This document shows, piece after piece, positions 1 through 29,738 of a stretch of 29,738 bases of DNA. Within the stretch, counting starts at the first letter, position 1; each line of letters opens with the position of its first letter. The notes beneath the pieces are model-generated. The model saw nothing but the letters and a program-made list of their open reading frames with translations. It was not told where the DNA came from and did no database searches. Source of the stretch: a virus; IMG/VR virus record IMGVR_UViG_3300030406_003889, positions 1 through 29,738 of that record; one strand, 5' to 3'. Position numbers and translations under genes: made by a program.

Positions 1-3000
1 GCAATTATTGAGTTTGATGTCACGGTTGCAAATGTAAGCGGAAACAAATATCACCTAGACGGCGAAACAACAGCAAGTATTCAATTACTTCCGGGTATCA
101 CTTATAGGTTTGATACTAGTGATAGCTCTAACTCAGGACACCCACTTAAATTTTCTACAACTAAAAATGGTACACACGGATCAGGATCAGAATACACTAC
201 CGGTGTAAGCTACAACGGAACGCCGGGTAGCTCGGGTGCTTATACACAAATAGTTGTTGACGCAGCAACCGCAGACACTCTTTACTATTACTGTCAACAT
301 CACTCAGGTATGGGTGGGGACGCTGTTGTATCAGTACAGGGAACTTCTTTAAGTGCAAGTGATACAGATGATTTAAGCGAGGGAACATCAAATCTTTACT
401 TTACTAACGCTAGAGCTCGTAGTGCTATTTCCGTCACAGATAGCGGTGGCGACGGGTCATTAGCTTACAATTCATCAACGGGTGTCATAACATATACAGG
501 ACCAAGTGCAACAGAAGTAAGGTCACATTTTTCAGCGGGTACAGGTATAACACTATCTGGTGGTCAAATTTCTATACCGCAGGCTGTTTCAACAACTAGC
601 GATGTCACATTTAACGATTTAGTAGTTTCAGGAGATCTAACAGTAAGTGGTACTACTACAACTTTGAATACCGAAACATTGACAGTTGATGACAACATAA
701 TTGTATTAAACAATAATGTCACAGGAACGCCTAGTGAAAATGCAGGTATAGAAGTTGAGCGCGGTAGTTCTACAAATAAAACTTTAATATGGAACGAAAC
801 CGACGATAAGTGGACTGTTGGTAGCGAGAGGTTTGACGCAGGAAGTATTCACTCTACATTTACAGGAAACTTAACAGGTAATGTCACAGGTACAGTTTCC
901 TCAATAGCAAATCACGACACAGATAGTTTGAGTGAAGGATCAAGTAATCTTTATTACACACAAGCTAGATTTGATAGTGCATTTACAGCTAAAGATACAG
1001 ACGATTTAAGTGAGGGTAGCACAAACCTTTATTACACATCAACAAGATTTAACACAGCATTTAGCGGTAAATCTACTAGCGATTTGACAGAGGGTACAAA
1101 TAAATACTTTACAGACGAAAGGGTTGACGATAGAGTAAACGCCTTATTAACAGCAGGGTCAAATATTACACTTACCTATGACGATAATGCTAATACACTT
1201 ACAATCGCCTCAACAGATACAGAAGATGATTTATCTAATAACGATACCGACGATTTAAGTGAAGGTACTACCAACAAATACTTTACCGACGAAAGAGTAG
1301 ATGATCGTGTAAATACTTTACTAACAGCAGGTAGTAATATATCCCTAACTTATGACGACGCAGCAAATACTTTAACTATTGCATCAACAGACACCGAAGA
1401 TGATCTTTCAAATAACACTACAAGCGATTTAGCCGAAGGGTCAAATCTCTACTATACAAATGCAAGAGCTGACGCGAGAATAGCTCTAACAAATTTACAA
1501 GACTTAGCTAATGTAGGTTTTTCCGCACCCGGCTCAAGCGAAAATCAAAAAGTTGTATCGTGGGATAACTCTGCCGGTAGTTTTGCACTTGTTTCCGTAT
1601 CTGGTTTGTCTGGGTCTGGTGAAACTAACACAGCGTCTAACATTGGAACAGCAGGTGTAGGCTTATTTGATGGTAAAGTTGGTGAAGATCTACAGTTTAA
1701 GAAACTTAATGCAGGATCTTCAAAAATAACTATTACGGACGATACTTCTAATAATGAAGTAGATATTGATTTTGGTACAGTTTCTATAAATGATTTAAGT
1801 GATGTTGATACGGCCACATCAGCTCCAAGCTCTGGTCAAGCGTTAAAATGGTCTGGGTCTAATTGGATTCCGGGTGACGCAAGTTCAGCTATATCACAAC
1901 TTAGCGATGTCACACTTACATCTTTAGCTACTAACGAAGTATTAAGATACAACGGTAGTGCTTGGGTAAATGTAGGTCTTACAACTGACAATACAAGTGA
2001 AGGTAGTACAAATCTATATTTCACTAATGCAAGAGCTAGGGGTGCAATATCCGCAGCGTCAGGATCAGGTTTATCATACAATTCAACAACAGGTGAGTTA
2101 AGTACCGCAAGCATACCTAATTCAAAGTTAGCTAATAGTTCTATAACAGTCACCGACGGATCAAACTCAACAGCTACCGCTTTGGGTGGAACTATTACAT
2201 TTTCAGGAACTTCTAATGAAGTAGAGGTTGCTGAAAGTTCAGGAACAATAACTATTGGACTTCCTAGTGATACAACTATTGGAAATGATTTAACAGTCAC
2301 AAATGACATATCAGTTGGCGGAGATGCAACTATTACAGGAAACCTTACCGTATCAGGTACAACTACAACAGTTAACTCTAATACAGTAAACATTGGTGAT
2401 AGCATCATAACTCTTAATAGCGACGAAACAGGATCACCATCACAAGACGGTGGTATAGAAATAGAAAGAGGCTCTGCTACAAATAAAACATTAGTTTGGG
2501 ACGAAACAAATGATAAATGGACAGTAGGTAGTGAAACTTTTGTGGCGGGTACTTTTGAAGGTAATGCTACAGGACTTACAACTACTTTCTTAACAGGTAA
2601 GTCAGCACTAACAAGTGCAAGCGTGGCCGACGACGATGTACTACTTGTATATGATACAAGTACAACTAGTTATAAGAAGATCACAAAGAGTAATCTTGTA
2701 TCAGGATCAGGATCTTCTCTAACAGGTGAAGCACCATTAACACTAGCCGATAGTTCTAGTGACCCTATTGAATTTTTAAATCTTGGTAGCACAGGTACGG
2801 ATATTGATGTCACACTTACAGACGGTACAACCGACCCAATACAAATTACTTCTACAAGTGCTAGTGCAACAGCATTTAGAGATAATGACAACGATACGAA
2901 AATACAAGTAGAAGCAACAACCGACGCTGATGATATAAGAATATCTACCGCAGGTACTGAAAGAGTTAGGATTGAGTCGGATGGTGTATTTGATCTTAAA

Positions 3001-3468
3001 TCTGCAAAGCTAAAGATAAACAGTAGCGCAGGTACTAACGGTCAAGCTCTAGTGACTGACGGATCGGGCAACATATCTTGGGGTACAGTTGCAACCGGTA
3101 GTACAGCAGTAGGTGATTTATCAAATGCAGATACTACAGGACTAGCTACAGGAGATAGCTTAGTTTACAATGGCACAAACTTTGTACCTCAAAGACCTAC
3201 AAATATAGAAGATGCTGACGGTGACACAAGAGTTCATGTAGAGGAAAGCTCCGACGAGGACAAAGTAAGAATAGATACCGCCGGTACAGAAAGAATGATA
3301 ATTGACAATAATGCAACAATGTCAGCAAATGGTGGTTTCTTTATACATAGAACAACTATGGCGTCAGGTGAAACTTTTACAATATCAGCCAACACAGGAA
3401 CAGTAGCAGCAGGACCATTAGATATAGAGGGTACTGTTGATGTAGCCGGAACATTGGTGGTTGTATGA
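1..3468 (+). CDS. Giant repeat tail-fibre protein with N-terminal cupredoxin-like domain (5' end outside window)
   Basis: The reading frame is open from base 1, so the true start lies upstream; 1155 residues are visible. Residues 1-110 read as a cupredoxin-like beta-sandwich: YHLDG, then HPLKFS with His47, and YYCQHHSGMGG with Cys98, His101 and Met104. These are the ligand types of a type 1 copper site. The rest is low-complexity fibre. Seven copies of a D.sEG.(s)N.Y(F/Y)T..R module are followed by two copies of a module running from TVSGTTTT to KWTVGSE and two copies of a module ending in TAGTER. Such modules are typical of marine phage tail fibres. The ATG at 310 is internal (Met104) and should not be taken as the start. 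It ends in an ATGA overlap with the next gene. Fibre identity is secure; copper binding is inferred. Confidence 0.9.
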   Translation, partial: AIIEFDVTVANVSGNKYHLDGETTASIQLLPGITYRFDTSDSSNSGHPLKFSTTKNGTHGSGSEYTTGVSYNGTPGSSGAYTQIVVDAATADTLYYYCQHHSGMGGDAVVSVQGTSLSASDTDDLSEGTSNLYFTNARARSAISVTDSGGDGSLAYNSSTGVITYTGPSATEVRSHFSAGTGITLSGGQISIPQAVSTTSDVTFNDLVVSGDLTVSGTTTTLNTETLTVDDNIIVLNNNVTGTPSENAGIEVERGSSTNKTLIWNETDDKWTVGSERFDAGSIHSTFTGNLTGNVTGTVSSIANHDTDSLSEGSSNLYYTQARFDSAFTAKDTDDLSEGSTNLYYTSTRFNTAFSGKSTSDLTEGTNKYFTDERVDDRVNALLTAGSNITLTYDDNANTLTIASTDTEDDLSNNDTDDLSEGTTNKYFTDERVDDRVNTLLTAGSNISLTYDDAANTLTIASTDTEDDLSNNTTSDLAEGSNLYYTNARADARIALTNLQDLANVGFSAPGSSENQKVVSWDNSAGSFALVSVSGLSGSGETNTASNIGTAGVGLFDGKVGEDLQFKKLNAGSSKITITDDTSNNEVDIDFGTVSINDLSDVDTATSAPSSGQALKWSGSNWIPGDASSAISQLSDVTLTSLATNEVLRYNGSAWVNVGLTTDNTSEGSTNLYFTNARARGAISAASGSGLSYNSTTGELSTASIPNSKLANSSITVTDGSNSTATALGGTITFSGTSNEVEVAESSGTITIGLPSDTTIGNDLTVTNDISVGGDATITGNLTVSGTTTTVNSNTVNIGDSIITLNSDETGSPSQDGGIEIERGSATNKTLVWDETNDKWTVGSETFVAGTFEGNATGLTTTFLTGKSALTSASVADDDVLLVYDTSTTSYKKITKSNLVSGSGSSLTGEAPLTLADSSSDPIEFLNLGSTGTDIDVTLTDGTTDPIQITSTSASATAFRDNDNDTKIQVEATTDADDIRISTAGTERVRIESDGVFDLKSAKLKINSSAGTNGQALVTDGSGNISWGTVATGSTAVGDLSNADTTGLATGDSLVYNGTNFVPQRPTNIEDADGDTRVHVEESSDEDKVRIDTAGTERMIIDNNATMSANGGFFIHRTTMASGETFTISANTGTVAAGPLDIEGTVDVAGTLVVV
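361..2049 (+). repeat. Seven diverged copies of the LYFTNAR fibre module
   Basis: Within the giant fibre, units matching D(T/N).(D/S)L(S/T/A)EG..N(L/K)Y(F/Y)T..R recur seven times. The versions end in LYFTNAR, LYYTQAR, LYYTSTR, KYFTDER (twice), LYYTNAR and LYFTNAR. Two consecutive units around 1112-1415 are almost identical as protein but use different synonymous codons. This is a protein-level structural repeat, not a DNA repeat array. Confidence 0.85.
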
Positions 3469-3710
3469 CAGATCAAATAATTATAATATTAGGCTCTATG
3501 GCTCTTGGCTATGGTCTTGGATTTATAGTCCGTCTTATTATTGACGATAAAAAAGAAAAGATCAACAGGTTGGAAAGGAGCGATTTCGACGATGGCGTAA
3601 AGTATAATAATGTAGGCGGACCTACACTTCAAGAAATGGTGGACTCAAAATACGATCCTGAAAACTATTTTGCAGGTAAAGGAAGGAATTATCATAATGA
3701 GCGAACTTAA
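3465..3710 (+). CDS. Small single-pass membrane protein
   Basis: An 81-residue protein. Residues 4-26 form one strongly hydrophobic segment (IIIILGSMALGYGLGFIVRL), followed by a charged soluble tail. It starts in an ATGA overlap with the giant fibre gene, so translation is probably coupled, and its end overlaps the start of the next gene by 14 bases. I do not recognise the family. The position between structural genes suggests a virion-associated or membrane-associated accessory protein, but no function can be assigned. Confidence 0.7.
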   Translation: MTDQIIIILGSMALGYGLGFIVRLIIDDKKEKINRLERSDFDDGVKYNNVGGPTLQEMVDSKYDPENYFAGKGRNYHNERT

Positions 3711-4251
3711 TGTAGATACAATAAACGAACAAACATCAGCTAATGGTGTGACTATTGACGGTGTTTTAATTAAAGATGGTCAAGTTGATGGTGTAGATGT
3801 ATCAGGTATTACTTCAGGTCCTGCTGTAAGCGAATCAACTTGGTCAAGTACAATAAGTTATTCTACGAATTTAAATGCTACATCAGGGTATTCAACAACT
3901 ACTCTTACAGGGAACTATTACAAAGTTGGTAAACTACTACATTTTTGGCTACCAACAATAAATAGAACAAGTATGTCGCAAAGTGCAGACTTTATTGTTA
4001 ATGATATTTCATTACCTGAAGCGTCTTCTTCAACGAACAATACTGCAAATATGGTTTATGGATATAACTTACAGGGTAGGTATAACGCTACAGATTACAC
4101 AAATGGTTATGCAGTCTGTTCTGTAGGGTCAAGCACAAGCACAGCAGGAACTCAATTTTATGGAACAAATGGTACAGGGCAAGGTAAATTACGATGCTAT
4201 GGAAGTTCAGGCAGTATTGTAATTTCAGGTTGGTACATAACAGCAAGTTAG
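3697..4251 (+). CDS. Short tail-fibre protein
   Basis: A 184-residue protein beginning MSELNVDTINEQTSANGVTI. The N-terminal NVDTI(N/E)E..ANGV.IDGV..KDG pattern is common in marine phage fibre proteins. The rest is Ser/Thr/Gly/Asn-rich and probably beta-structured, with YNLQGRYNA and a GSSGSIVISGWYITAS C-terminus. I chose the ATG at 3697 because GGAAGG lies at 3681-3686; the in-frame ATG at 3670 would lengthen the overlap with the membrane-protein gene and add nine unmatched residues. The stop TAG fuses with the Shine-Dalgarno of the next gene (TTAGGATAAATA). The receptor is unknown. Confidence 0.8.
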   Translation: MSELNVDTINEQTSANGVTIDGVLIKDGQVDGVDVSGITSGPAVSESTWSSTISYSTNLNATSGYSTTTLTGNYYKVGKLLHFWLPTINRTSMSQSADFIVNDISLPEASSSTNNTANMVYGYNLQGRYNATDYTNGYAVCSVGSSTSTAGTQFYGTNGTGQGKLRCYGSSGSIVISGWYITAS

Positions 4252-4259
4252 GATAAATA

Positions 4260-5360
4260 ATGGCTAGCAAAATAAAAGTAGATAATATAGAGGAAAATAC
4301 TTCAAATGGTGGTGTAAATATTGGACACAACCTAAATTTAAAATCTCTTACAACCTCGCAGATTAACGCTCTATCAGGTATGAGTGCAGGTGCCGCAGTA
4401 TATGACTCTGATCTAGGAACTATAAAACTATATAACGGGTCATCTTGGAACGCTATGTCAAGTAGCACTTTTAGTATTGCTTGCGATTACTTAGTAATAG
4501 CAGGTGGTGGAGCGGGCGGACACCAACACGGCGGAGGTGGAGGTGCCGGAGGCTATCGTGCAACTTACAATAATGAAGCGTCAGGTGGCGGAGGATCATC
4601 GGAATCACAATTATCTTTAGTGCCGGGAACATCTTATACGGTGACAGTTGGTGCAGGTGGCGCAGGTGTCGCAGGTGGAGGATCTTCGGAATTTGGTAGT
4701 GACGGTAATGAGGGTAGCGATTCAGTATTTCATACAATAACTTCTATTGGAGGAGGATCTGGCGGACAATGGAGCGGTCATGTCGGGACAGCAGGAGGCT
4801 CAGGCGGGGGCGGAGCTACGCATGGAGCGGCAGGCGGTGCAGGAACAGCTAATCAGGGCTACGCAGGTGGATCAGGATCAAATGTTAGCGATCACTTTGC
4901 CGGCGGAGGCGGAGGAGCAGGATCAGTAGGTGTGAATGGTGTAAATCAAAAAGCAGGTAATGGTGGGGACGGTGTAGCCTCAACTATTACCGACGCTAGT
5001 GTAGAAAGAGCAGGAGGCGGTGGTGGAGGTATCTATAAAGGTACAACAGGTGCTACTCTTTCTTGGCGGGGTTTAGGTCAAGACGGTGGGGGCAACGGTG
5101 CAGGAAACGCCGGTGGACAAAATGAAAATTTCTCAGCAACTTCAGGTACAGCTAATACCGGTGGGGGCGGTGGGGGAACAGGTACTTACCATAGTGGAGC
5201 GACATCAGGCTCAGGTGGTAGTGGTGTTGTAATACTTCGTTATCCTGATAACTTTACTATAACTGCAAGTGCAGGTTTGACTGCTAGTACATCAAATGGA
5301 TCAGGAAATACAAAAATAACTACATTTACAGCAGGAACAGGAACAATAACTTTTAGTTAG
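4260..5360 (+). CDS. Glycine-rich tail-tip adhesin
   Basis: A 366-residue protein with three parts. Residues 1-65 form an attachment module with IKVDNIEENTSNGGV and ending in KLYNGSSW, shared with neighbouring fibre genes. Residues 77-320 are a long glycine-rich domain starting YLVIAGGGAGG with many GGGGG and GAGG runs. The C-terminal part has GSGVVILRYP. The YLVIAGGG ... GGSGVVILRY bracket is typical of the Gly_rich_2 family seen in marine phages. T-even gp38-type adhesins use polyglycine helices with hypervariable loops between them, so a receptor-binding role is a reasonable inference. The short Gly-poor segments such as HHFAGG-like and QNENFSAT regions would be the variable loops. The stop TAG overlaps the next gene's TAGGAG. 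Confidence 0.85.
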   Translation: MASKIKVDNIEENTSNGGVNIGHNLNLKSLTTSQINALSGMSAGAAVYDSDLGTIKLYNGSSWNAMSSSTFSIACDYLVIAGGGAGGHQHGGGGGAGGYRATYNNEASGGGGSSESQLSLVPGTSYTVTVGAGGAGVAGGGSSEFGSDGNEGSDSVFHTITSIGGGSGGQWSGHVGTAGGSGGGGATHGAAGGAGTANQGYAGGSGSNVSDHFAGGGGGAGSVGVNGVNQKAGNGGDGVASTITDASVERAGGGGGGIYKGTTGATLSWRGLGQDGGGNGAGNAGGQNENFSATSGTANTGGGGGGTGTYHSGATSGSGGSGVVILRYPDNFTITASAGLTASTSNGSGNTKITTFTAGTGTITFS

Positions 5361-5368
5361 GAGATAAT

Positions 5369-5776
5369 ATGGCTCATTACGCATTTTTAGACAGCAACTC
5401 AATAGTGACAAATGTAATAGTTGGAAAAGACGAAACAGAAGATCTGCCAACAGGTTTTAGTTCTTGGGAAAATTTTTACGCAAATGAAATGGGACAAAAC
5501 TGTAGGAGGACTTCATACAATACTTACGGAAACGAACATAAAGAAGGTGGTACAGCCTTTAGAGGTAATTACGCAGGTAAAGGATTTTACTATGACGCTC
5601 AAAACGATGTATTTATTCAACCGCAACCTTATCCAAGTTGGACACTTAACGAAACAACTTGGTTATGGGAAGCACCTATTGACTACCCAGACGACGATAA
5701 AGGTTATTATTGGAACGAAAATGCACATTTGAGAGATATTACAGCAGGTTGGGAACTGCTTGAAGTACAGGAGTAA
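5369..5776 (+). CDS. Conserved marine phage tail-associated protein
   Basis: A 135-residue protein starting MAHYAFLDSNSIVTNVIVG, with CRRTSYNTYGNEHKEGG, FRGNYAGKGFYYD and QPYPSWTLNETTWLWEAP. I recognise this arrangement as a family widespread in cyanophages and other marine phages next to fibre genes. It has no established function that I know of. The aromatic, compact make-up and its position between fibre genes suggest a fibre-associated cap or assembly protein, but this is inference. A good TAGGAG lies just upstream of the start. Confidence 0.8.
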   Translation: MAHYAFLDSNSIVTNVIVGKDETEDLPTGFSSWENFYANEMGQNCRRTSYNTYGNEHKEGGTAFRGNYAGKGFYYDAQNDVFIQPQPYPSWTLNETTWLWEAPIDYPDDDKGYYWNENAHLRDITAGWELLEVQE

Positions 5777-5779
5777 ATT

Positions 5780-6025
5780 ATGTCAATATTAAAAGTAAAT
5801 GAGATAAGACCAAGATCGACAGGTGCAAGTGTAGATTTTACAGTACCCGTTGGTTTAAAAGCTTACACAACCACGGAAAGAGATGCTTTGTCGTCTTTAT
5901 CAGCCGGGGAAGTGATATGGAATACCACAACTTCAAAAATGGAAGTGTACAATGGTAGCAGTTGGGATTCAGTAGCTACAGGATCAGCAGGTGCAAGTTT
6001 AGGTCTAGTTGTAGCGCTAAGTTAG
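5780..6025 (+). CDS. Minimal fibre module protein (NGSSW type)
   Basis: An 81-residue protein made almost wholly of one module: LKVNEIRPRSTGASVDFTVP, then TTTERDALSSLSAGEVIWN and MEVYNGSSWDSV. The same module opens the glycine-rich adhesin and the 8987-9442 protein, so this gene is a stand-alone copy of a fibre attachment or trimerisation unit. AGGAG before the previous stop gives a ribosome binding site. Its own stop TAG is part of the next Shine-Dalgarno (TTAGGATAATT). Confidence 0.75.
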   Translation: MSILKVNEIRPRSTGASVDFTVPVGLKAYTTTERDALSSLSAGEVIWNTTTSKMEVYNGSSWDSVATGSAGASLGLVVALS

Positions 6026-6032
6026 GATAATT

Positions 6033-6365
6033 ATGGCAGAAACATTTAAAAATGCTTATCAGGATATTACATCGTCCGCCGCTACTATATATACTTGTCC
6101 GGCATCAACAACAGCAATCGTTTTAACACTAAGAATTACAAATATTGACGGTACAAATGACGATACAATTACAGCAGATGTTATTGATAGTGGTGGATCA
6201 GCAAACGCTAGAATAGCTTACACAATAACTGTTCCCGCCGACTCGACACTTGAATTAGCCGGTACTTCTAAAATTGTTTTAGAGGCAGGAGACTACATAC
6301 AATTACAGGGCGGTGCTTCGTCGGGAGATCTTGAAGCCTTTGCGAGTATCTTAGAAATAACATAA
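6033..6365 (+). CDS. Small beta-rich virion protein
   Basis: A 110-residue protein with a regular beta pattern: TIYTCPASTTAIVLTLRITN, then TVPADSTLELAG and KIVLEAGDYIQLQGG. It resembles the 9451-9780 product in length and in having a mid-protein stretch that mentions time-independent hydrophobic strands followed by an NIDGTND or TATDRT turn. Small proteins of this kind sit among tail-fibre genes of marine phages. A decoration or fibre-base role is plausible but unproven. Confidence 0.65.
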   Translation: MAETFKNAYQDITSSAATIYTCPASTTAIVLTLRITNIDGTNDDTITADVIDSGGSANARIAYTITVPADSTLELAGTSKIVLEAGDYIQLQGGASSGDLEAFASILEIT

Positions 6366-6375
6366 AGGTTTTGAT

Positions 6376-7119
6376 ATGCCTAAAAGTATCAACCCTAACT
6401 ACATAGGTAAATCACCTGAGTTTGATGAAATAAAACAACTAGAGGGAAAATTTGATACACAAATGTCTTCTCAACAAATTAACATCAATACTTCAGATGT
6501 TATTCCTGATATTTCAACTAATCCTTTAAACATATATGTACCAAGTACATTTAACGATACTACAAAAGTATGGGAAGACTATATGGGTAATAATAATTCT
6601 AGTAGTTATAGAGGTAGTCCTTCTTATACAACAGGTAGTTCATCTAACAATGCAACAAATATTACGGAATGGGTACAGGGTAATACCTCAGCAGGTTTAA
6701 GGTTTAGTCATACCACTTGTAGTTCTGGATATACAGGATTTACTGTGACAAGATACAATGGAACTGAAGGAAGAATTTGGGAAGGAAAAAGTGGTAATTG
6801 GCTTTCAGGTCATTGGAGCGGTAATTGTCCTGTAGCCTATCACGAAGGTTGGCTTACAGATCAAGGCGACAGAGCAGGTACAAGTTGGATTGTGACAGTT
6901 GATCAATATAACTATTTTAGAGGATATTATAATGGAACAAGCTATGGTGGTACAGGTGGTAGCAATAGCAATAGTAGTTATTGGTGTTTAAACGCAGGCG
7001 ATAGAGCTGAAGATAGCGATTGGGCTTGTTATGGTTTTTGGTATTACAACACTACTTTAGGAACAAGTGATCGTGATCAAGTAGTTTCATATATAAAAAA
7101 CTTAGTGGGTATTTCATAA
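6376..7119 (+). CDS. Candidate spike/adhesin with C-terminal lectin-like domain
   Basis: A 247-residue protein with a short N-terminal anchor (PKSINPNYIGKSPEFDEIKQ) and a long Gly/Ser/Asn/Trp/Tyr-rich C-terminal domain from about residue 65. That domain is beta-rich in appearance, with TEWVQGNTSAGLRFSH, NGTEGRIWEGK, WLSGHWSGN and YWCLNAGDRAEDSDWACYGF. The end, TTLGTSDRDQVVSYIKNLVG, resembles the terminal D...L..YL pattern of concanavalin-like LamG proteins. I assign a carbohydrate-binding spike with moderate confidence. It ends in a TAATG overlap with the next spike gene. Confidence 0.65.
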   Translation: MPKSINPNYIGKSPEFDEIKQLEGKFDTQMSSQQININTSDVIPDISTNPLNIYVPSTFNDTTKVWEDYMGNNNSSSYRGSPSYTTGSSSNNATNITEWVQGNTSAGLRFSHTTCSSGYTGFTVTRYNGTEGRIWEGKSGNWLSGHWSGNCPVAYHEGWLTDQGDRAGTSWIVTVDQYNYFRGYYNGTSYGGTGGSNSNSSYWCLNAGDRAEDSDWACYGFWYYNTTLGTSDRDQVVSYIKNLVGIS

Positions 7120-7880
7120 TGACTAATAGAAGACTGCCCAGAGTATTTGGTTATAGGGGTAAATATCCTAGAACTACCGGAACAGAATCTACAGCAACTG
7201 AAAAATTAGTTGGTAGTCAAAATCACGAAGAAGCATACGCTTTAGCAGTCAATAACTCGGGCAGGGGGTTGTCAGCCGAAAATCCTTTTACTGAATTGTC
7301 ACAACCCGGCGCAGACAATGTAGAGAACGGAACATATTACTTTAACTTATCTAATGGTGCTACTACTGCTTATGTAGATGGAGATGGGACATATACAGAC
7401 GACAGTTCAAATCATTGGGTTTTGTATCAATCATTTGCTAGCGATAATGCTTTTACAACTTCTAATGTTAAAGGTTTGTATGGTAATAGAATATTAATTA
7501 ATCAGGGCGGTTGGCACGATAGTGGTTGGACAAATTGGCACGATGGAAATACTAACTCGGGTTATGGTTATCACAGAGGTACAGGTTTCGTAGCTTTTTT
7601 TGGCTCTAGTGGTAATGTGGCTCATTGGTACAATACAATACCTTTTACAAATGAAGTGACGCAAACAAGAATCCGTTGTGGCTCTGCCGCAGGTACAGAT
7701 ATTCAATACTATTCTAAAAATGGATCAGGTGGCTGGACAACACATCACAATGGAATATCTAACACAGATCAATGGCGTAATTCAGGTAGTCCTAATAATC
7801 ACTTAGAAGGTGGTTATCATATTTGGTTAAGAGAGGGTAGTGGCTCAATATGGCGTATTCAGTCAATGTGGTTTAGATAA
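7119..7880 (+). CDS. Spike protein A with shared N-terminal anchor
   Basis: A 253-residue protein. Residues 1-43 (MTNRRLPRVFGYRGKYPRT, then GTESTATEKL and HEEAYAL) match residues 1-43 of the 8091-8909 protein closely, while the remaining ~200 residues are unrelated to it. The C-terminal domain is rich in Trp, His, Gly and Asn (GGWHDSGWTNWHDGNTNSGY, GGYHIWLREGSGSIWRIQS) and looks like a beta-sandwich binding domain. A conserved anchor with a swapped head is the typical architecture of phage receptor-binding proteins. TAATG overlaps at both ends indicate coupled translation with its neighbours. Confidence 0.75.
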   Translation: MTNRRLPRVFGYRGKYPRTTGTESTATEKLVGSQNHEEAYALAVNNSGRGLSAENPFTELSQPGADNVENGTYYFNLSNGATTAYVDGDGTYTDDSSNHWVLYQSFASDNAFTTSNVKGLYGNRILINQGGWHDSGWTNWHDGNTNSGYGYHRGTGFVAFFGSSGNVAHWYNTIPFTNEVTQTRIRCGSAAGTDIQYYSKNGSGGWTTHHNGISNTDQWRNSGSPNNHLEGGYHIWLREGSGSIWRIQSMWFR

Positions 7881-9442: not shown

Positions 9443-9450
9443 GAGAATAA

Positions 9451-19533: not shown

Positions 19534-19535
19534 TT

Positions 19536-21835: not shown

Positions 21836-21844
21836 GAGATTCGT

Positions 21845-22069: not shown

Positions 22070-22090
22070 TTTAATTACAAGTGCGTCGAT

Positions 22091-22111
22091 AGGGGGACTA
22101 TATGTCCTCCT
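22091..22111 (+). promoter_or_regulatory. Stable stem-loop pairing a Shine-Dalgarno-like with an anti-Shine-Dalgarno-like strand
   Basis: AGGGGGAC (22091-22098) can pair with GTCCTCCT (22104-22111) around a five-base loop TATAT, giving eight pairs with one G-U. There is no strong T-tract after it, so it is not a classical terminator. It lies 22 bases after the holin stop and 18 bases before the nuclease start. The left arm resembles a ribosome binding site for the ATG at 22102, which sits in the loop, while the nuclease's own AGAGG (22119-22123) stays free. It may be a processing site or partial terminator. Confidence 0.5.
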
Positions 22112-22128
22112 ATTGTTTAGAGGATCAA

Positions 22129-22473
22129 ATGTATTATTATAAAATAGAGTTATTAAGAGTAGTAGATGGAGATACGATCGATGTCAGAATTGATTTGGGT
22201 TTTAATGTGTGGCATAAATGTCGTATTCGACTCGTGGGTATTAATGCTCCTGAATCACGAACAAGAGATAAAGAAGAGAAAAAACGAGGGTTGGCTGCGA
22301 AATCTTGGCTTATAGACAAACTTGAGTCCGCCGAGGACGAATTAGAAATGAAATCTTATGGTGTAGGTAAATATGGCCGTGTCTTGGGGGAGATCTACAT
22401 AAATGAGGTCAATATAAACGAACTAATGGTTAAGGAAGGACACGCAGTAAAATATGATGGCGGGAAGAGGTAG
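22129..22473 (+). CDS. Staphylococcal-nuclease (thermonuclease) homologue
   Basis: A 114-residue protein with the SNase core: LLRVVDGDTIDVRIDLGF, RIRLVGINAPESRTRDKEEK, KRGLAAKSWLIDKL and YGRVLGEIYINEVNINELMV, ending EGHAVKYDGGKR. VDGDT and the R-L-x-G-I-N-A-P-E stretch carry the calcium and active-site acid/arginine positions, so it is probably active on DNA or RNA. No signal peptide is visible. I start at ATG 22129 behind TAGAGGATCAA; an in-frame ATG at 22102 also has a GGGGG upstream but lies in a hairpin. Roles could include host DNA degradation or nucleotide salvage; its place in a lysis region is unusual. Confidence 0.9.
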   Translation: MYYYKIELLRVVDGDTIDVRIDLGFNVWHKCRIRLVGINAPESRTRDKEEKKRGLAAKSWLIDKLESAEDELEMKSYGVGKYGRVLGEIYINEVNINELMVKEGHAVKYDGGKR

Positions 22474-22487
22474 GAAGTGATGAGAGA

Positions 22488-25241
22488 GTGCTTCGTAAGT
22501 TCAATACCTTAGTTCGTTTATTAATTGTTGCTTTACTAATATATCCTTTCCCCTTAGCAGTAGCACAAGAAGTCACCGTCAACGAGGGTTTTAGTGATCA
22601 AGATTGGGATGGCTACTTTACTATTACAAGAGAAAATAGTAATTCACATAATACTGTTTGGACAGAAAGTAGTAATTACGGAACGCAGGGACAATTTCTA
22701 AGTTTATGTCATCAAGTTCATGGTAGTTGTACTCACGAATATACTTTTGAATTTTCAAGTGATATAGATGTATATGAAGTAGGTTTTGAAGTAGGTGCAG
22801 TCAATCAAGCATACTCAGTCACTTTTTATTATTCGGATGATACAACCGAAACAGAAAACAAGTCTGCACAGGCTTATGGAAATAATGGTGCAGATATGTA
22901 TGACACATTTTATAAATCATTTACTGATTACAATGCAGTAGCAGAAAACACAGATAAATTTATAACAAAGTTTGTTATTGACATACACGATTGGTCTAGC
23001 TTTGACGATATGTATTTTCAATACGACGATGCTATATCTACAGGTAGTTTTGCTACAACAACTACGACTTCTAGCACTACGACAACTACAACTACAACTA
23101 CAACTACCACAACGACTACTACTACCACTACTACCACAACTTTACCCCCTGCGCCTAACGGAATATCTAGTTATACAATTAGTGAAAGCTCAAGTGGTAT
23201 AACAGTTGATTGGGAAACACCATCCGATAACGGTGTCACAATAGGTGGGTATAGAATATTAGTAGCAGAAACCTATGATCAAGACTATAACGCTAACACT
23301 TGGTTTGAGGTGTATAGAAGTACAGATACCGATACTACGGAATTTACTTTACCGTGGGTAGATAACAATGACGCAATAGAATATGACACTCTAAACGGCA
23401 CTTACTACTATCGTTTATCAACTTGTGCTACTAATTGGATGTGTAATGATGTTGAGGCGACTTATACAGTAGATAATACTGTTGGACCACCAATGAATCC
23501 TACAGTAGAAAATGTTTACAATAGTGGTGTCAAAGTTGTATGGGATATGCCTAACACAGGAACTAGAATTGCTGAGTCTTATGATTTATATTACAGAATA
23601 GACGCAGAAAACGAAACTGTTGTCTATAACATAACAAATACAGAGTACACTATACCTTATAGTGCAATTACTAACAACACTTACGAATTTTCAATTAGAG
23701 CTTATAGCTCTACTTATAATGTTTATAGTGGTTATTCTACCGAGCCGACGCTAACAGTATTTAATCAAAAAGCACAAGACGATTACGACGCTGAACAAAA
23801 GCGTTTAGCTGAAGAAGAGGCTGAACGCAAAAGACAACAAGCTATACAAAACGAAAAAAATAAAAATTTTAACGAAACAGGTTATTACGAAACAGATCAA
23901 GAGCGTAGAGATCGTGAGCAAAGAGAGTATGAAGAAGAGCAAGCCCGTCTAAAAGCTATTGAAGAGGCTTTAGAGCAAGAAAGACAATCTAACTTTGCCG
24001 AAACAGGATATTATGAAACTAACCAAGAGCGTGCTGACAGGGAATATCAAGAAGAACAAGATAGATTGGCAGAATTACAAAGACAGCGTGACAAAAACGA
24101 AGCTGAAACAGGTTATAGCGAAACAGATGAGGAAAGAGTTGCTAGAGAATTAGCGGAAGAAAAGGCTCGTATTGAGCAAGAAATTAAAGACTCTATTGTA
24201 TTACCTACTACAACTACAGACACAGACGATGATGACCAATCACAATTTGGTGGTGGTGGAGAGCCAATAGACATAATTGAGTTAGTAGAAACTATAATTG
24301 AAATAAAAGAAAATACGGATTTTGATGATTATAAAGTTGACACAACGCCAGAAATTAACTTGGAAGAGATTGTTATTGTCGTACCTCCTACTACGACGAC
24401 TACGACCACGACTACAACCACTACTACAACGACTATCCCAGATAAACCTGAACAAGATGAGGATAACTCATTTTTTGGTACGGAGGGAGATCAAGAGGTA
24501 CAACTCACAGAAGAAGAAGTAGAAGTTTTAGTAGAGGCTGCTGAGGAAGCTATTACAGAAGTAGTAGAAGTAGAGGAGTTGACCGAAGTATTTGAGGATA
24601 ATGAAATAGAAATTATCGAGGAAGAAGAGTTAGAAGATCTGTCGGTTGAAGAGCAAGAAGAGTACATAGAACAGGTAGAAGAGGCGGTAGCGGAAGTTGT
24701 TGCCGAACTTGATACAGAAGAAAAAGTAGAAGTCGTAAAAGAAGTAGCTAAGGTTTCCGTACAAAACTTAGGTAATGCTGATACAACAACTAAAGCTGTT
24801 GTAAAAGCTGTTGTTAAAGAAGTCACAAAGGTAGAAACCGTAGCTGAATTAGACGAAGAAGAAAAACAAGCCGTTGGTGAAGTGTTAGGTTTTGAAGAAG
24901 AAACAGCGGCGGAAGATGTTGAAATTATTGCACAACAAGCAGCCGAAGAAGAAAACATAGCTACAGCTGTTGAGGAATATGTTGAAAGAGCTATTGCTAA
25001 CGAAGATGTTGAAAATTTTACACTTGCAGATGTTGTCACAGAGGTACAAGTAGAGGCGTTTTTGGAAAATCCAATAGGTGAGCTGACAAGTGTTAATATA
25101 GATATTAGAGAGATGGATCTGGGGTCGATAGGCGCTGACATGACAAGCGACCAAAAAGAAAAAGCACAAGAAGTAGTAGTACCGGTTATTATTGCTTCTC
25201 AAATTATCGCTCAAGCGGGTGCTTTAATTAGGAGATTTTAG
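22488..25241 (+). CDS. Large secreted, C-terminally anchored protein with Thr linkers, FnIII and coiled-coil domains
   Basis: A 917-residue protein from GTG 22488. Residues 1-26 are a signal peptide (basic start, LLIVALLIYPF core, AVA cleavage). Next come a beta-rich domain (27-188), a 29-residue Thr/Ser linker (190-218), two fibronectin-III-like domains (about 220-328 and 334-424), and a charged coiled coil (430-570) with three ETGY(Y/S)ET...ER repeats. A Gly-rich hinge leads to a second linker of 15 Thr (635-649), a very acidic helical region to about 860, and a C-terminal hydrophobic helix (VVVPVIIASQIIAQAGALI) ending in RRF. It would be exported and membrane-anchored. Thr linkers are typical of actinobacterial surface proteins. 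Possible roles: receptor masking, adhesion or virion component. Confidence 0.8.
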   Translation: MLRKFNTLVRLLIVALLIYPFPLAVAQEVTVNEGFSDQDWDGYFTITRENSNSHNTVWTESSNYGTQGQFLSLCHQVHGSCTHEYTFEFSSDIDVYEVGFEVGAVNQAYSVTFYYSDDTTETENKSAQAYGNNGADMYDTFYKSFTDYNAVAENTDKFITKFVIDIHDWSSFDDMYFQYDDAISTGSFATTTTTSSTTTTTTTTTTTTTTTTTTTTTTLPPAPNGISSYTISESSSGITVDWETPSDNGVTIGGYRILVAETYDQDYNANTWFEVYRSTDTDTTEFTLPWVDNNDAIEYDTLNGTYYYRLSTCATNWMCNDVEATYTVDNTVGPPMNPTVENVYNSGVKVVWDMPNTGTRIAESYDLYYRIDAENETVVYNITNTEYTIPYSAITNNTYEFSIRAYSSTYNVYSGYSTEPTLTVFNQKAQDDYDAEQKRLAEEEAERKRQQAIQNEKNKNFNETGYYETDQERRDREQREYEEEQARLKAIEEALEQERQSNFAETGYYETNQERADREYQEEQDRLAELQRQRDKNEAETGYSETDEERVARELAEEKARIEQEIKDSIVLPTTTTDTDDDDQSQFGGGGEPIDIIELVETIIEIKENTDFDDYKVDTTPEINLEEIVIVVPPTTTTTTTTTTTTTTTIPDKPEQDEDNSFFGTEGDQEVQLTEEEVEVLVEAAEEAITEVVEVEELTEVFEDNEIEIIEEEELEDLSVEEQEEYIEQVEEAVAEVVAELDTEEKVEVVKEVAKVSVQNLGNADTTTKAVVKAVVKEVTKVETVAELDEEEKQAVGEVLGFEEETAAEDVEIIAQQAAEEENIATAVEEYVERAIANEDVENFTLADVVTEVQVEAFLENPIGELTSVNIDIREMDLGSIGADMTSDQKEKAQEVVVPVIIASQIIAQAGALIRRF
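23055..23141 (+). repeat. Poly-threonine linker 1
   Basis: Twenty-nine codons encode Thr except for two Ser. All four Thr codons (aca, act, acg, acc) are mixed, so the tract is held at protein level instead of arising by simple trinucleotide slippage. It separates the N-terminal domain from the first fibronectin-III-like domain. Confidence 0.9.
24390..24434 (+). repeat. Poly-threonine linker 2
   Basis: Fifteen consecutive Thr codons of mixed type, preceded by VVPP and followed by IPDKPEQDED. It separates the coiled-coil and hinge part from the long acidic region. Such VPPTTTT...(L/I)P linkers are a feature of many actinobacterial extracellular proteins. Confidence 0.9.
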
Positions 25242-25547
25242 ATGATCAAAAAGATTTTTAGATTTTTAAATAATGTATTGGGACTACCTTATCAATTTGT
25301 TAAGTTGTCCATAAAAAGTTTTATAAGTTCTACAAAGTGGACTTGGAAGCAAATAAAGAAAATAAGTATAAAAGGTATAGCAAAGTGGCTATTTGATGTT
25401 GTTAAAGAGTCAATAGCGCAGATCTTCACCTTACTTGGTTTTTTTATTGCTTGGTTTACTTTGACCGGAACGGCACAAGATATTGTAGGTATTGCAATAG
25501 TCGTATCTACAATTATATGGTTAGTGACTATTAGATTGCGAGATTAA
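25242..25547 (+). CDS. Membrane protein with basic amphipathic N-terminus
   Basis: A 101-residue protein. Residues 1-55 are basic and rich in aromatic residues (KKIFRFLNNVLGLPYQFVKL, STKWTWKQIKKISIKGIAKW), suited to lie on the inner face of a membrane. Two membrane segments follow, IAQIFTLLGFFIAWFTLTGT and VGIAIVVSTIIWLVTI. It starts one base after the large secreted protein, behind TTAGGAGATTTTAG. Probably an envelope partner of that protein or a lysis regulator. No family recognised. Confidence 0.7.
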   Translation: MIKKIFRFLNNVLGLPYQFVKLSIKSFISSTKWTWKQIKKISIKGIAKWLFDVVKESIAQIFTLLGFFIAWFTLTGTAQDIVGIAIVVSTIIWLVTIRLRD

Positions 25548-25549
25548 CT

Positions 25550-25588
25550 ATGGAATGTTGCGGAAATGGATGCTGCGGAGGTAAATAG
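25550..25588 (+). CDS. Candidate 12-residue cysteine-rich micropeptide
   Basis: An ORF encoding MECCGNGCCGGK fills the gap between two membrane-protein genes exactly. It starts two bases after the previous stop and ends in TAGTG, overlapping the next start. The CC-x3-CC layout is striking. There is no good Shine-Dalgarno before it, while its own GCGGAGG serves the next gene, so the peptide could be a by-product of that site or a coupling leader. Expression is unproven. Confidence 0.35.
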   Translation: MECCGNGCCGGK

Positions 25589-25845
25589 TGCCTAGCGGTT
25601 TATCCAAATTGCAAAAAATCAAAATGATCATGGCTCGTATGGTCGCTGTATTCGTTGCTAACGGACTAGCAATCATTGGAGCAGGATCAATTATTGGTAT
25701 TGACACCCTTAGCTCCGTGCTTTTGGCCGGGTCTTTGGGTGTCGCCAAAGTCACAGAAGCACTAGCTCGTGGTTTTCTCGATGACGGTAAACTAACTATT
25801 GATGAAATAAATGAAGCATTTGGCGGAAAAAAAGAAGAGTTTTAA
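25588..25845 (+). CDS. Actinophage-type small membrane protein (holin candidate)
   Basis: An 85-residue protein from GTG 25588 behind GGAGG. A basic N-terminus is followed by membrane segments RMVAVFVANGLAIIGAGSII and LSSVLLAGSLGVAKVTEALA, then the polar end RGFLDDGKLTIDEINEAFGG. The order (V/A)FV...L..IGAG...GID...A.LAG..GV..V.E.LAR..LDDGKLT..EIN.AF matches small lysis-region membrane proteins I associate with actinophages. It may be a second holin or antiholin to the r1t-like one. Confidence 0.7.
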   Translation: MPSGLSKLQKIKMIMARMVAVFVANGLAIIGAGSIIGIDTLSSVLLAGSLGVAKVTEALARGFLDDGKLTIDEINEAFGGKKEEF

Positions 25846-26040
25846 ATGAGTGAGCATAAGCATCCTGTTGGTCTTACACAAAAGGAAATGATTATGCTTG
25901 TATTAGATGGGCAGGAAAGAATAAACGACCGTATCGATCAATTACACGAAAAGGTAAATTCAAAAATATCAAGAGCTGAATTAAGCGGGTGGCTAGTAGC
26001 AGTTTCCGCTTTAGTAGTTCTTGTTCAAGCAGTTATGTAA
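25846..26040 (+). CDS. Coiled-coil plus membrane-anchor protein (XhlA-like)
   Basis: A 64-residue protein starting directly after the upstream stop. Residues 12-42 form a helix with heptads (EMIMLVLDGQERINDRIDQL, HEKVNSKISRAEL) followed by one membrane segment, GWLVAVSALVVLVQAVM, at the C-terminus. This helix-then-anchor layout is shared with haemolysin XhlA-type lysis accessory proteins. It probably works with the neighbouring holin-like proteins. Confidence 0.65.
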   Translation: MSEHKHPVGLTQKEMIMLVLDGQERINDRIDQLHEKVNSKISRAELSGWLVAVSALVVLVQAVM

Positions 26041-26063
26041 ATTAGTCCCAGAAGGGAGTTCTA

Positions 26064-26207
26064 ATGACAGAAATAATTTTAGTTTTAACAGTATCTATAA
26101 CTTCTATTGGTCTTTTAGTATGGCTAGCTGTTATGGGTACAAGATTTTTTAAATACTTCGGCGAAGTAGTACAGGAGATTTTAGATGAGCAGAAAAAGAA
26201 TCAATAG
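26064..26207 (+). CDS. 47-residue single-pass membrane protein
   Basis: MTEIILVLTVSITSIGLLVW and LAVMGTRFFK form one membrane helix, followed by YFGEVVQEILDEQKKNQ on the other side. AGAAGGGAG lies upstream at a good distance. It is the last of the run of small membrane proteins and overlaps the first zinc-ribbon gene by 23 bases. A third holin-like or spanin-like component is possible; nothing more specific can be said. Confidence 0.6.
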   Translation: MTEIILVLTVSITSIGLLVWLAVMGTRFFKYFGEVVQEILDEQKKNQ

Positions 26208-26343
26208 ATGTGTTGAGTGCAATGCGCCACTTAAACACATAGCAAATAATAAATGGATGTGTGATCAATCACCGAGTAATTGTAGTATGTCTATAAAAGT
26301 TATATTTTTAGACAATCCGGAAAAAAAAGATGAAGAAGAGTGA
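26185..26343 (+). CDS. 52-residue zinc-ribbon-like protein
   Basis: MSRKRINRCVECNAPLKHIA followed by NNKWMCDQSPSNCSMSIKVI. C9-x2-C12 and C26-x6-C33 make a plausible four-Cys zinc site, with an acidic C-terminal tail (NPEKKDEEE). AGGAG lies seven bases upstream of the ATG. It overlaps the next tiny Cys protein by 14 bases. Zinc ribbons of this size often bind nucleic acid or protein partners. Function unknown. Confidence 0.6.
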   Translation: MSRKRINRCVECNAPLKHIANNKWMCDQSPSNCSMSIKVIFLDNPEKKDEEE

Positions 26344-26467
26344 CCCGCCGTGTCCTGTATGCAACCATACATTAATGGAAAGACACGCGGGATTATATTG
26401 CTATAATTACAAATGTCCGCAATTTAATCAAAAGGTGGTGGCGTGCTGTGAAGGAGGACAATGCTGA
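26330..26467 (+). CDS. 45-residue zinc-ribbon-like protein
   Basis: MKKSDPPCPVCNHTLMERHA then GLYCYNYKCPQFNQKVVACC and EGGQC. C8-x2-C11 and C24-x4-C29 form a probable zinc site; the terminal CCEGGQC adds three more Cys. The first glycosyltransferase starts 20 bases before this gene ends. Two consecutive mini zinc ribbons overlapping a glycosyltransferase operon suggest common expression, though partners are unknown. Confidence 0.6.
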   Translation: MKKSDPPCPVCNHTLMERHAGLYCYNYKCPQFNQKVVACCEGGQC

Positions 26468-27449
26468 AAAGATTTATGTGTATTTCGCCTGTTTTAATGA
26501 CAGCGAAGTATGTCCTACTATATCAAATTGTATTTTAAGTGCTGATCAACCTGAAAATTTAGTGTTTGGAATATATTTTCAATACACCAAAAATTATACA
26601 CGATACGCATTTACAGATTTTATAAGTCAATTTGATAATGAGTTTAGAGTAGATTACGAGCATATTACGGAAGATAATATTGTAGATGTTATTGGTCTAG
26701 CTAAAGGTCGTATAAAATCGTATGCTATGTGTCAAGACGAAGAGTATAAAATGCTTATCGACGGACACATGATGTTTGCTAATGGTTGGGACACTAAAAT
26801 TAAAGAAAAGCACAAAATAGCAGACGATCGAGGAATAACTAAGCCAATTATTAACGGTTATGCAGGATTGTATTATTTTGATGACGAGGGTAATAGAGTC
26901 CCGCATTTTAGAAAAGAATTGACTAATCTACGCTATCAATATTTTGTCGTTGACGACGAAAATGATATACACCAAAAAATGATGAGATTTAATTGGCATG
27001 ATAGATTACCAACTCATGTTATGACAGATCTAAATCCAAATGGCGACGAAATTGTACCTAATGTAAGATTTTCCGGTAATTTTAGTTTTTCTAGGTATAA
27101 CTTAGTAGAACATTTACCTGAGTGGGTTATATTTGAGGACGAGGAGATGCCGTGGACTATAAACTTATTTGACGCAGGTTTTAACTTTGTCTTTCCTTTA
27201 TTTGACGAGCCAACCATTATGCACTTATATATGGGTAGAGAGCCATTTGATGTACAATCTACTAGAGATCAAATAGAGTTTTTGTACCCAGATTATCAAG
27301 CTTTACAACAACAAAAGTATGACAATGTTTCTAATTATTTAGACGATCCAGATAATTATGATAAAATTATAAAATATCAAGAATATGCAAAAGTTAAAAT
27401 TTTATCAGGTGAAACAATAGATAGATATGTCCCAAACAATTTTCGTTAA
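26448..27449 (+). CDS. GT60-like glycosyltransferase (GlcNAc-transferase family), copy 1
   Basis: A 333-residue protein from GTG 26448. The GT-A-type N-terminal part has VYFACFNDSEVCPTISNCIL, LVFGIYFQY, AKGRIKSYAMCQDEEYKMLI and DGH at 105-107 as the metal/nucleotide-sugar motif, then ANGWD. The C-terminal half has VRFSGNFSFSRY, a W.IF.DEE.P motif and HLYMGR. This order resembles the GlcNAc (PF11397, GT60) family, which adds GlcNAc to hydroxyproline in eukaryotic Skp1. The copy at 27427-28260 shares all these blocks. Likely acceptor: a phage or host protein or glycan. Confidence 0.75.
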   Translation: MKEDNAEKIYVYFACFNDSEVCPTISNCILSADQPENLVFGIYFQYTKNYTRYAFTDFISQFDNEFRVDYEHITEDNIVDVIGLAKGRIKSYAMCQDEEYKMLIDGHMMFANGWDTKIKEKHKIADDRGITKPIINGYAGLYYFDDEGNRVPHFRKELTNLRYQYFVVDDENDIHQKMMRFNWHDRLPTHVMTDLNPNGDEIVPNVRFSGNFSFSRYNLVEHLPEWVIFEDEEMPWTINLFDAGFNFVFPLFDEPTIMHLYMGREPFDVQSTRDQIEFLYPDYQALQQQKYDNVSNYLDDPDNYDKIIKYQEYAKVKILSGETIDRYVPNNFR

Positions 27450-28260
27450 AATCTGCTCTTTAGACGACACGGAGCTTGGACCTACAATTATGGATTGTGT
27501 TATAAAAGCAAGAGCGCCACATAAACTTAGATTTGGGATTAGTTTGATGTATAAAGACGAGGACACCCTAAAGGATTTTATGTCCGTTAAAAAGGAAGCT
27601 GAGAGCTTTGGGGCGCAATTTAGAGTCATTACACAACCTTTTAGAAAGTTTAACATAGGTGTTGGTAAAGCTAGAGCTACCGTAGATAGTATGTATAAAA
27701 ATGAGGATTATGTACTACAAATAGATAGCCATAGTTGGTTTCCTCATAATTGGGACTTAACGCTTACAAGTTTAATTATGTATCGTGATCCTAAGACAAT
27801 ATTTACCGGATACGGATCACCTTATACCTATGAAAACGGTAAAAGAGAGCCAAAGGATATAGGTAAATTACTTTACCCCGAACTAACAAATGACAAACTG
27901 TTTTGTGAGTGGCTACCTCAAAATTGGCGTCCGGTATATCCAAATAGTGAAGAAACCTTTATACCTACTAAGTTTTGTGCTAATTTTTCATTTGGTACAA
28001 GTAAGTGGGGCGAATATTCGGGTGTCTTTGAAAAAGCTATATTTTATAGTGAAGAGCCTGTACAAACACAAAAATTAAAAGCAAAAGGTTTTAAATTGCT
28101 TTATCCAAACTTAGACGAGCCAATGATATGTCATTTGTATTACAACGACATAGGACATTATGGTAAAAGAAAAGCATTTACAGATTATGTAAGTGACTTT
28201 GAAAGTAATTACTTAATGAATGTAATGGACAAACATTATTACGAAAATTTTACAGTTTAG
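27427..28260 (+). CDS. GT60-like glycosyltransferase, copy 2
   Basis: A 277-residue protein. VKICSLDDTELGPTIMDCVI, KARAPHKLRFGIS, GKARATVDSMYKNEDYVLQI, D100-S-H102, PHNWD, TKFCANFSFGTS, IFYSEEP, LKAKGFKLLYPNLDEP and HLYYND follow the GT60/GlcNAc-transferase order. DSH in place of DxD is usual in that family. It overlaps copy 1 by 23 bases, so both are made together; divergence suggests different acceptors or sequential action. The C-terminal helical tail is shorter than in copy 1. A non-coding gap of 107 bases follows. Confidence 0.8.
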   Translation: MSQTIFVKICSLDDTELGPTIMDCVIKARAPHKLRFGISLMYKDEDTLKDFMSVKKEAESFGAQFRVITQPFRKFNIGVGKARATVDSMYKNEDYVLQIDSHSWFPHNWDLTLTSLIMYRDPKTIFTGYGSPYTYENGKREPKDIGKLLYPELTNDKLFCEWLPQNWRPVYPNSEETFIPTKFCANFSFGTSKWGEYSGVFEKAIFYSEEPVQTQKLKAKGFKLLYPNLDEPMICHLYYNDIGHYGKRKAFTDYVSDFESNYLMNVMDKHYYENFTV

Positions 28261-29606: not shown

Positions 29607-29738
29607 TTGTAAAGGGGTAGGTCCGCCGGAAGTCGTTTTCGTGGTTGAAGTGCGACTTCCTCTACCTCTAGTTCATCAAATCCAATATCGTCGTCAATTA
29701 CAACTTCGCTATCGGTTAGATCGGCCACTTCCTTACCG
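29603..29738 (-). CDS. 3' end of a minus-strand gene (partial)
   Basis: On the minus strand the frame is open from the window edge to a TAA at 29605-29603, giving 44 visible residues: GKEVADLTDSEVVIDDDIGF, then DELEVEEVALQPRKRLPADL and PLYN. The acidic stretch ending in a basic, Pro-containing tail reads like genuine protein. It is the only minus-strand gene I can support, and its stop overlaps the AIPR-like gene's stop by two bases, so transcription converges here. The protein family cannot be identified from this fragment. Confidence 0.6.
   Translation of the reverse strand, partial: GKEVADLTDSEVVIDDDIGFDELEVEEVALQPRKRLPADLPLYN

What the first reader, a model, noticed from the sequence alone, without database searches (positions are those of the whole stretch)
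1..29738. ACGT and GTAAC/GTTAC appear to be absent from the whole window
Reading every line, I found no ACGT and no GTAAC or GTTAC, while GTCAC, GTGAC, GTAC, GATC, GCGC and GTTAAC all occur. Assuming about 35% G+C and random order, roughly 95 and 60 occurrences would be expected. Coding choices agree. Val-Thr pairs are written GTC-ACN or GTG-ACN (dozens of cases), although GTA and GTT are the common Val codons elsewhere. Asp-Val and Asn-Val use GAT-GT and AAT-GT. Gly-Tyr is GGT-TAT and Gly-Asn GGT-AAT. This is strong selection against two short words, most simply explained by restriction or another DNA-targeting system in the host.
Basis: partly seen in the sequence, partly recalled or inferred. 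Interest (0 to 1): 0.82.

Follow-up and report, generated by a model that had tools for sequence, protein, structure and literature searches.

The report
Phage genomes missing short DNA words
A family of ocean viruses that probably infect marine actinobacteria has lost a few very short DNA words from its genomes, most likely because bacteria cut DNA at those words, and in some members further words are missing only from the early-gene end of the genome.

Summary
The window has 0 ACGT and 0 GTAAC/GTTAC, against 65 and 58 by Markov model and 62 and 56 after synonymous codon shuffling. More than two words are affected: GAACC 0, CCWGG 0, CASTG 2, CAAGG 2; palindromic hexamers stand at 0.65 of expectation.

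The window matches part of an 85-kb phage contig (99.9% over 27.2 kb). ACGT is absent from 43 of 43 loci found with one window protein and 15 of 15 found with the contig's C5-methyltransferase; two contigs of this clade hold 3 each. GTWAC is missing only in some branches; sister clades lack GATC. On an 86-tip tree ACGT status changes 4 times, GATC status twice.

Best explanation: selection by host restriction. Several of these phages also carry DNA methyltransferases and a SAM synthetase. No phage gene was found to track ACGT loss; no host enzyme was identified.

New here: in 3 of 8 contigs with early genes, further words (GTAC; CCGG; CCAG and others) are absent only from the early-gene end, as expected if restriction acts on DNA entering first.

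The parts
1..29738 (.). whole window: no ACGT and no GTWAC on either strand; also no GAACC/GGTTC, CCWGG, ACTGG/CCAGT
1..27752 (.). stretch held also in IMG/VR contig IMGVR_UViG_3300030116_005269 (G001, 85,160 bases, reversed): two overlapping-order matches, 1-27238 at 99.90% and 27302-27752 at 99.78%
19759..21000 (+). core gene used to find the clade; nearest annotated phage proteins are called exonuclease or Mre11 (about 32% identity); no Pfam match
18809..19072 (+). ferredoxin (Fer4_15, Fer4_13); highest identity among the 80 genome loci kept is Candidatus Actinomarina AG-447-L16 (75%)
22102..22473 (+). SNase-type nuclease gene; belongs to the late-region gene set, no link to the words was tested
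29661..29738 (+). last 78 bases recur, exactly, at G001:62503-62580, near the edge of the word-free early zone of that contig

Best explanation
The phage has removed ACGT, GTWAC and several other short, mostly palindromic words because DNA carrying them is cut on entry by restriction systems of the bacteria it meets. Words for which the phage has no other answer are removed from the whole genome; others appear to be tolerated, perhaps because the phage's own methyltransferases or an early-acting protective function cover them. In some members certain words are removed only from the early-gene end, which would be the part that enters before protection is made. Shown: the absence, its selection signature, its inheritance, its switching between lineages, the methyltransferase genes, the zoned absence. 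Inferred: that the agent is restriction, that it is the host's, the entry order, and what protects the rest of the genome.
For: Zero counts against synonymous-shuffle expectations. ACGT 0 in 43 of 43 loci, 15 of 15, 37 of 37 loci L180-L216, overlapping sets. Orthologous ACGT sites of G074: 0 kept of 31-32 in four ACGT-free relatives, against TGCA 15-21 kept of 46-53 and AGCT 25-32 of 74-81; single changes occur at all four positions. Other lineages lack other words: GATC, CATG, GGCC, CCWGG, GCATC. Palindromic hexamers 0.65 of expectation in the window, other hexamers 1.01. Phage-borne methyltransferases: PF01555 matches 4, 6, 5 and 3 in G001, G016, G023, G015 (4 of 23 records), C5 type, MT-A70 in G001, G023, G016, SAM synthetase. 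GATC is absent in clades B, C and D but present and raised in the methyltransferase-bearing clade. Early-end-only absence: GTAC 0/45 early against 142/190 late in G023; CCGG 0/11 against 142/79 in G001; CCAG 0/38 against 93/96 in G097.
Against: No host is proven: the portal gene has no match in 42 Actinomarinales genomes. No enzyme for ACGT or GTWAC was found or could be assigned. The putative host group looks poor in R-M genes: C5 methylase in 1 of 12 genomes; the usual single PF01555 gene (36 of 42 genomes) had no recognisable restriction partner beside it in the 4 of its loci I read. Clade-wide constancy of ACGT loss is longer-lived than most R-M systems are thought to be. ACGT is not avoided by a single-cell-linked Actinomarina phage. 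G097 lacks methyltransferase matches (PF01555, PF05063; PF00145 not searched there) yet shows zoning, so methylation alone does not explain the zones.
Confidence: 0.78

Rival explanations
1. The phage itself makes an ACGT-specific nuclease that destroys host or rival DNA, and its genome lacks the word to be safe from its own enzyme. This would explain the clade-wide constancy.
For: ACGT loss is inherited for long times (4 changes on an 86-tip tree); candidate host DNA has ACGT at near-expected frequency; the phages carry several nuclease-like genes without family matches.
Against: The best candidate, a 173-aa gene 70-88% conserved between ACGT-free clades, also occurs in 11 of 17 loci with ACGT present. 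No G001 or G097 gene hits all 6 ACGT-free early-region records while missing all 14 ACGT-containing records, though several of the 14 hold only late genes. Early-end-only words cannot be explained by a nuclease that would cut the whole genome.
Confidence: 0.09
2. The words are methylation targets (of the phage's or the host's solitary methyltransferases), and methylated sites harm the phage, for instance through methyl-dependent restriction or by disturbing expression.
For: Several methyltransferase genes and a SAM synthetase in the clade; a conserved solitary methyltransferase in 36 of 42 Actinomarinales genomes.
Against: G097 and G098 have no PF01555 or PF05063 match yet lack GATC (and ACGT in G097) entirely. 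A host-wide solitary methyltransferase would be expected to press on all phages of that host, but the Actinomarina-linked phage keeps ACGT, GATC and GTAC.
Confidence: 0.07
3. The zoned and genome-wide gaps come from mosaicism, mutation bias, or base-calling artefact rather than selection.
For: Several contigs end in an inverted copy of an internal 60-83 base stretch, a sign of assembly artefacts; in G097 that stretch (15892-15961) lies beside the zone edge. C2-to-T is the commonest single change at lost ACGT sites.
Against: Changes at lost sites hit all four positions; neighbouring words of equal composition are normal; many contigs from different metagenomes agree. For mosaicism a donor lineage lacking GTAC, CCAG or TCGA throughout would be needed: among 267 low-GC loci the only low ones are the G023 and G097 early stretches themselves.
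Confidence: 0.05

Closest known systems
Elimination of restriction sites in phage genomes (Rusinov et al. 2018, PMC6286503, passages seen)
   Same: Observed/expected far below 0.1 for short, mostly palindromic words; that study reports site elimination in 7.5% of its phage-site cases.
   Different: Here one word is missing clade-wide, several words are missing at once, and some words are missing from one end only; the host enzymes are unknown, so the pairs cannot be matched as in that study.
Staphylococcus phage Twort, GATC
   Same: Strict zero: GATC 0/114 in the first 50 kb; shows that a strict zero is not unique.
   Different: No end-restricted words of comparable strength in that stretch.
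Phage T5 first-step transfer and its early-encoded protection from restriction (PMC8594841 passages; record note; EcoRI ris mutants recalled, not read)
   Same: Idea that only DNA entering first needs to lack sites; in T5 the first EcoRI site of the first 50 kb lies at 30,220.
   Different: In T5 the scan gave no strong end-restricted 4- or 5-mers; entry order and protection are unknown for the present phages.
Anti-defence genes in plasmid leading regions (PMC11541004 listing only; PMC11602122 passages)
   Same: Functions for the first-entering DNA are decisive for escaping restriction.
   Different: Concerns genes on conjugative plasmids, not word absence along a phage genome.

Membership tests
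Restriction-site avoidance by phages | Word count far below expectation under a composition model and under a synonymous-codon model | tested here: met
   ACGT 0 of 65 and 62; GTWAC 0 of 58 and 56
Restriction-site avoidance by phages | Missing words look like R-M recognition sites (palindromes, short exact words) | tested here: met
   palindromic hexamers 0.65, others 1.01; but GAACC, CAAGG, ACTGG are asymmetric
Restriction-site avoidance by phages | Related phages outside the pressure keep the word | tested here: met
   ACGT present in clades C, D, E and parts of B
Restriction-site avoidance by phages | Host encodes an enzyme of that specificity | tested here: inconclusive
   host not proven; R-M genes surveyed only by PF01555 and PF00145; no specificity assignable
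Phage-encoded sequence-specific nuclease with self-avoidance | A gene present in all word-free phages and absent from word-containing relatives | tested here: not met
   sampling of early regions is incomplete
T5-type protection after first-step transfer | Sites absent from the early-gene end, tolerated elsewhere | tested here: met
   G001, G023, G097; not in G016, G014, G019, G090, and only weakly in G098
T5-type protection after first-step transfer | That end enters the cell first and encodes the protection | not testable with these tools
   needs infection experiments

The most novel reading that the evidence does not exclude
These actinophage genomes record restriction pressure in two tiers: words whose enzymes the phage cannot counter are purged from the whole genome, and words whose enzymes it disables after the first DNA has entered are purged only from the entering segment. 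Word maps alone would then show entry polarity, the timing of protection, and the restriction repertoire met by uncultured hosts.
Probability: 0.35. Interest if true: 0.78.

Novelty: new variant of a known kind. Interest (0 to 1): 0.62.

Why it matters
Site avoidance is known, but a clade-wide strict zero for a 4-base word, with other words switching between sister lineages and a methyltransferase arsenal in part of the group, is an unusually clear natural record of restriction pressure in the open ocean, where hosts are uncultured. The end-restricted absence, if it reflects entry order, would turn sequence alone into evidence about when during infection a phage becomes safe from each enzyme, and it is testable in cultured phages.

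Tried and rejected
The 173-aa early gene (G001 78559-79080) as an ACGT determinant: rejected, 11 of its 17 loci have ACGT. Search for any gene of G001 or G097 tracking ACGT loss: none. GCWGC as an early-end word: rejected, its gap is explained by protein sequence, since synonymous shuffles expect only 1-5 GCNGC early. G016 as a zoned genome: no zone. G098: only weak (CCTGA 1/8 early, 63/74 late). Linking methyltransferase groups to words across 28 records: suggestive only (CCGG 0 in many M00 bearers, raised in M09 bearers), no specificity assigned. Dam-type PF02086: 2 of 27 records, both below cut-off. Anti-restriction ArdC-like gene: peptidase M78 match only just at the cut-off in G001, above it in G097, ArdcN below cut-off. 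The nearest single-cell host link: portal gene absent from 42 genomes. Literature: searches listed no paper that I could recognise, from titles and abstract openings, as describing end-restricted word absence in phages; this is not proof that none exists.

Full report
Counting. The window (29,738 bases, an IMG/VR virus record) holds no ACGT and no GTAAC/GTTAC on either strand, against 65 and 58 expected from overlapping shorter words. A second null, shuffling synonymous codons within genes, gives 62 and 56 (60 shuffles, lowest 51 and 45), so codon usage and protein sequence do not explain it. Val-Thr is written only GTC or GTG (24 and 10) although GTA and GTT are the common Val codons. The window lacks or nearly lacks further words: GAACC, CCWGG, ACTGG 0; CASTG 2, CAAGG 2; and palindromic hexamers as a class stand at 0.65 of expectation while other hexamers stand at 1.01. 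TGCA and AGCT are near expectation.

What it belongs to. A core window gene (19759-21000) found 43 IMG/VR loci. One contig, G001 of 85,160 bases, matches the window at 99.90% over 27,238 bases in reverse. G001 is a siphovirus-like genome with terminase, portal and HK97-type capsid matches and an actinobacterial WhiB gene. The ferredoxin of the window group has its highest identity, among the 80 genome loci kept, in Candidatus Actinomarina (75%). A marine actinobacterial host is therefore likely but not proven: the portal gene has no match in 42 Actinomarinales genomes. No near DNA match exists in the 'phages' collection for window 1-24000.

Distribution. ACGT is 0 in 43 of 43 loci, in 20 of 20 contigs counted as long as fetched, window included, in 15 of 15 phage loci found with the C5 methyltransferase and in 37 of 37 loci L180-L216; these sets overlap. 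Two contigs of the clade, G069 and G094, hold 3 ACGT each against 27 and 21 expected. GTWAC is 0 in window-like and G023-like branches but near expectation in others, including L167, whose terminase is 97% identical to that of G001. Relatives with 61-65% terminase identity behave differently: a clade B lacks GATC and mostly ACGT; clades C and D lack GATC and keep ACGT; a small group E keeps both, while members counted in full or in long stretches lack CATG, GGCC and CCWGG. On a quick tree of 86 terminases ACGT status needs 4 changes and GATC status 2; a few long branches meet, so deep joins are uncertain, and loci with low but non-zero counts were scored as present. Thus the words are inherited traits that switch now and then, ACGT slowly and GTWAC faster.

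Selection rather than chemistry. Between G074 (clade B, ACGT present) and four ACGT-free relatives at 77-80% base identity, 0 of 31-32 aligned ACGT sites are kept, while TGCA keeps 15-21 of 46-53 and AGCT 25-32 of 74-81. Single replacements fall on all four positions, C2-to-T being the commonest; 10-14 of the sites involve an amino-acid change.

Genes that bear on it. G001, G016, G023 and G015 have 4, 6, 5 and 3 PF01555 methyltransferase matches (4 of 23 records). A C5 methyltransferase is found in G001 and in 5 of 16 other records searched; MT-A70 in G001, G023 and G016; a SAM synthetase in G001 with relatives in G023, G096 and L166. Clade B contig G097 and clade C contig G098 have no PF01555 or PF05063 match (PF00145 was not searched there). 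GATC, absent in B, C and D, is present and raised in the methyltransferase-bearing clade, for example 489 against 253 in G023 coding sequence; the rise itself is unexplained.

Two tiers. In G023 all 147 GTAC sites lie in bases 1-56,021 (last start) and none in the remaining 25.9 kb; in G001 the 146 CCGG and 187 CCGC sites stop at 65.5 and 67.4 kb; in G097 the 128 CCAG sites begin only at 16.2 kb. These ends carry early genes. Synonymous shuffles confirm the deficit: G023 early GTAC 0/45, TCGA 4/42, CCGC 0/13, GCGC 0/8, GGCC 0/6, CCWGG 0/6, against late GTAC 142/190, GGCC 62/36, CCWGG 57/56; G001 early CCGG 0/11, CCGC 1/18, GCGC 0/8, against late CCGG 142/79; G097 early CCAG 0/38, TCGA 0/22, CCGC 0/10, GATGC 0/9, GAACC 0/9. 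The GCWGC gap seen by the first scan is not avoidance. Of 8 contigs with early genes, G001, G023 and G097 show zones; G016, G014, G019 and G090 do not, and G098 does so only weakly. Four cultured phages (first 50 kb each of T5, Issmi, HTVC008M, Twort) gave no gap beyond 10^-6.7, and those were not R-M-like; but low-complexity words reach 10^-8.4 in one relative (G115), so the shuffle, not the gap score, is the test. Against mosaic origin: among 267 low-GC loci the only GTAC-poor ones are three stretches of G023 itself, and the CCAG- and TCGA-poor ones are from G097. Against over-reading: G097's contig end is an inverted copy of bases 15892-15961, beside its zone edge, so misassembly there is possible.

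Mechanism. The simplest account is restriction at entry. It explains why words are short and mostly palindromic, why sisters lack different words, why methyltransferases occur in the clade that keeps GATC, and why some words matter only in early DNA. A self-made nuclease would not spare late sites, and no gene tracked ACGT loss. The weak point is the host side: 13 Actinomarinales-type loci show ACGT 177/206, which is what a methylated host would show but also what an irrelevant one would show; a C5 methylase was found in 1 of 12 genomes; the common PF01555 gene (36 of 42) stood without a recognisable restriction gene in the 4 loci read. The 29.7-kb phage contig of single cell AG-919-G14 (described in PMC7771536, passages seen) keeps ACGT (128/156) and GATC (121/103) but nearly lacks TCGA, GCGC, GAATC, CCTGA, GTSAC, GGATG and CASTG, so multi-word avoidance is usual in such phages but ACGT is not a host-wide rule.

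Verdict. The clade-wide constancy and above all the end-restricted second tier are the parts worth following.

Noticed in passing
L045-L048 and L049-L053 (contigs G001 and G023), early-gene end: Words absent only from the early-gene end (GTAC, GGCC, CCWGG in G023; CCGG, CCGC, GCGC in G001).
   Followed up: yes
clade A contigs, for example G023 coding sequence: GATC is over-represented 1.4-1.9 fold against synonymous shuffles in clade A; no explanation.
   Followed up: partly
L518-L520 (G116, 40,218 bases): A WhiB-bearing phage with no protein match to these clades at E 1e-20 in the stretch compared (L487) lacks five palindromic 4-mers: AGCT 0/168, CATG 0/121, GATC 0/111, GGCC 0/66, CCGG 0/33.
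   Followed up: no
window 29661-29738; ends of G023, G016, G097, G098: Contig ends repeat an internal stretch of 60-83 bases in inverted orientation; assembly artefact or a real property of the genome ends.
   Followed up: partly
contigs G096, G070 and locus L166: Several records begin about 0.7 kb before the MT-A70 gene, close to the zone edge in G001 and G023, possibly a packaging site or genome end.
   Followed up: no
G001:58503-59591: Phage-borne S-adenosylmethionine synthetase inside a methyltransferase cluster.
   Followed up: partly
36 of 42 Actinomarinales genomes: A conserved PF01555 methyltransferase of mostly 276-283 aa beside ABC-transporter-like and suf-like genes in the loci read; gene names there are my reading of the sequences, not from a family search.
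   Followed up: partly
L531 (HTVC008M, first 50 kb): TCGA 0/39 and CASTG 2/65: strict zeros also in a pelagiphage.
   Followed up: no
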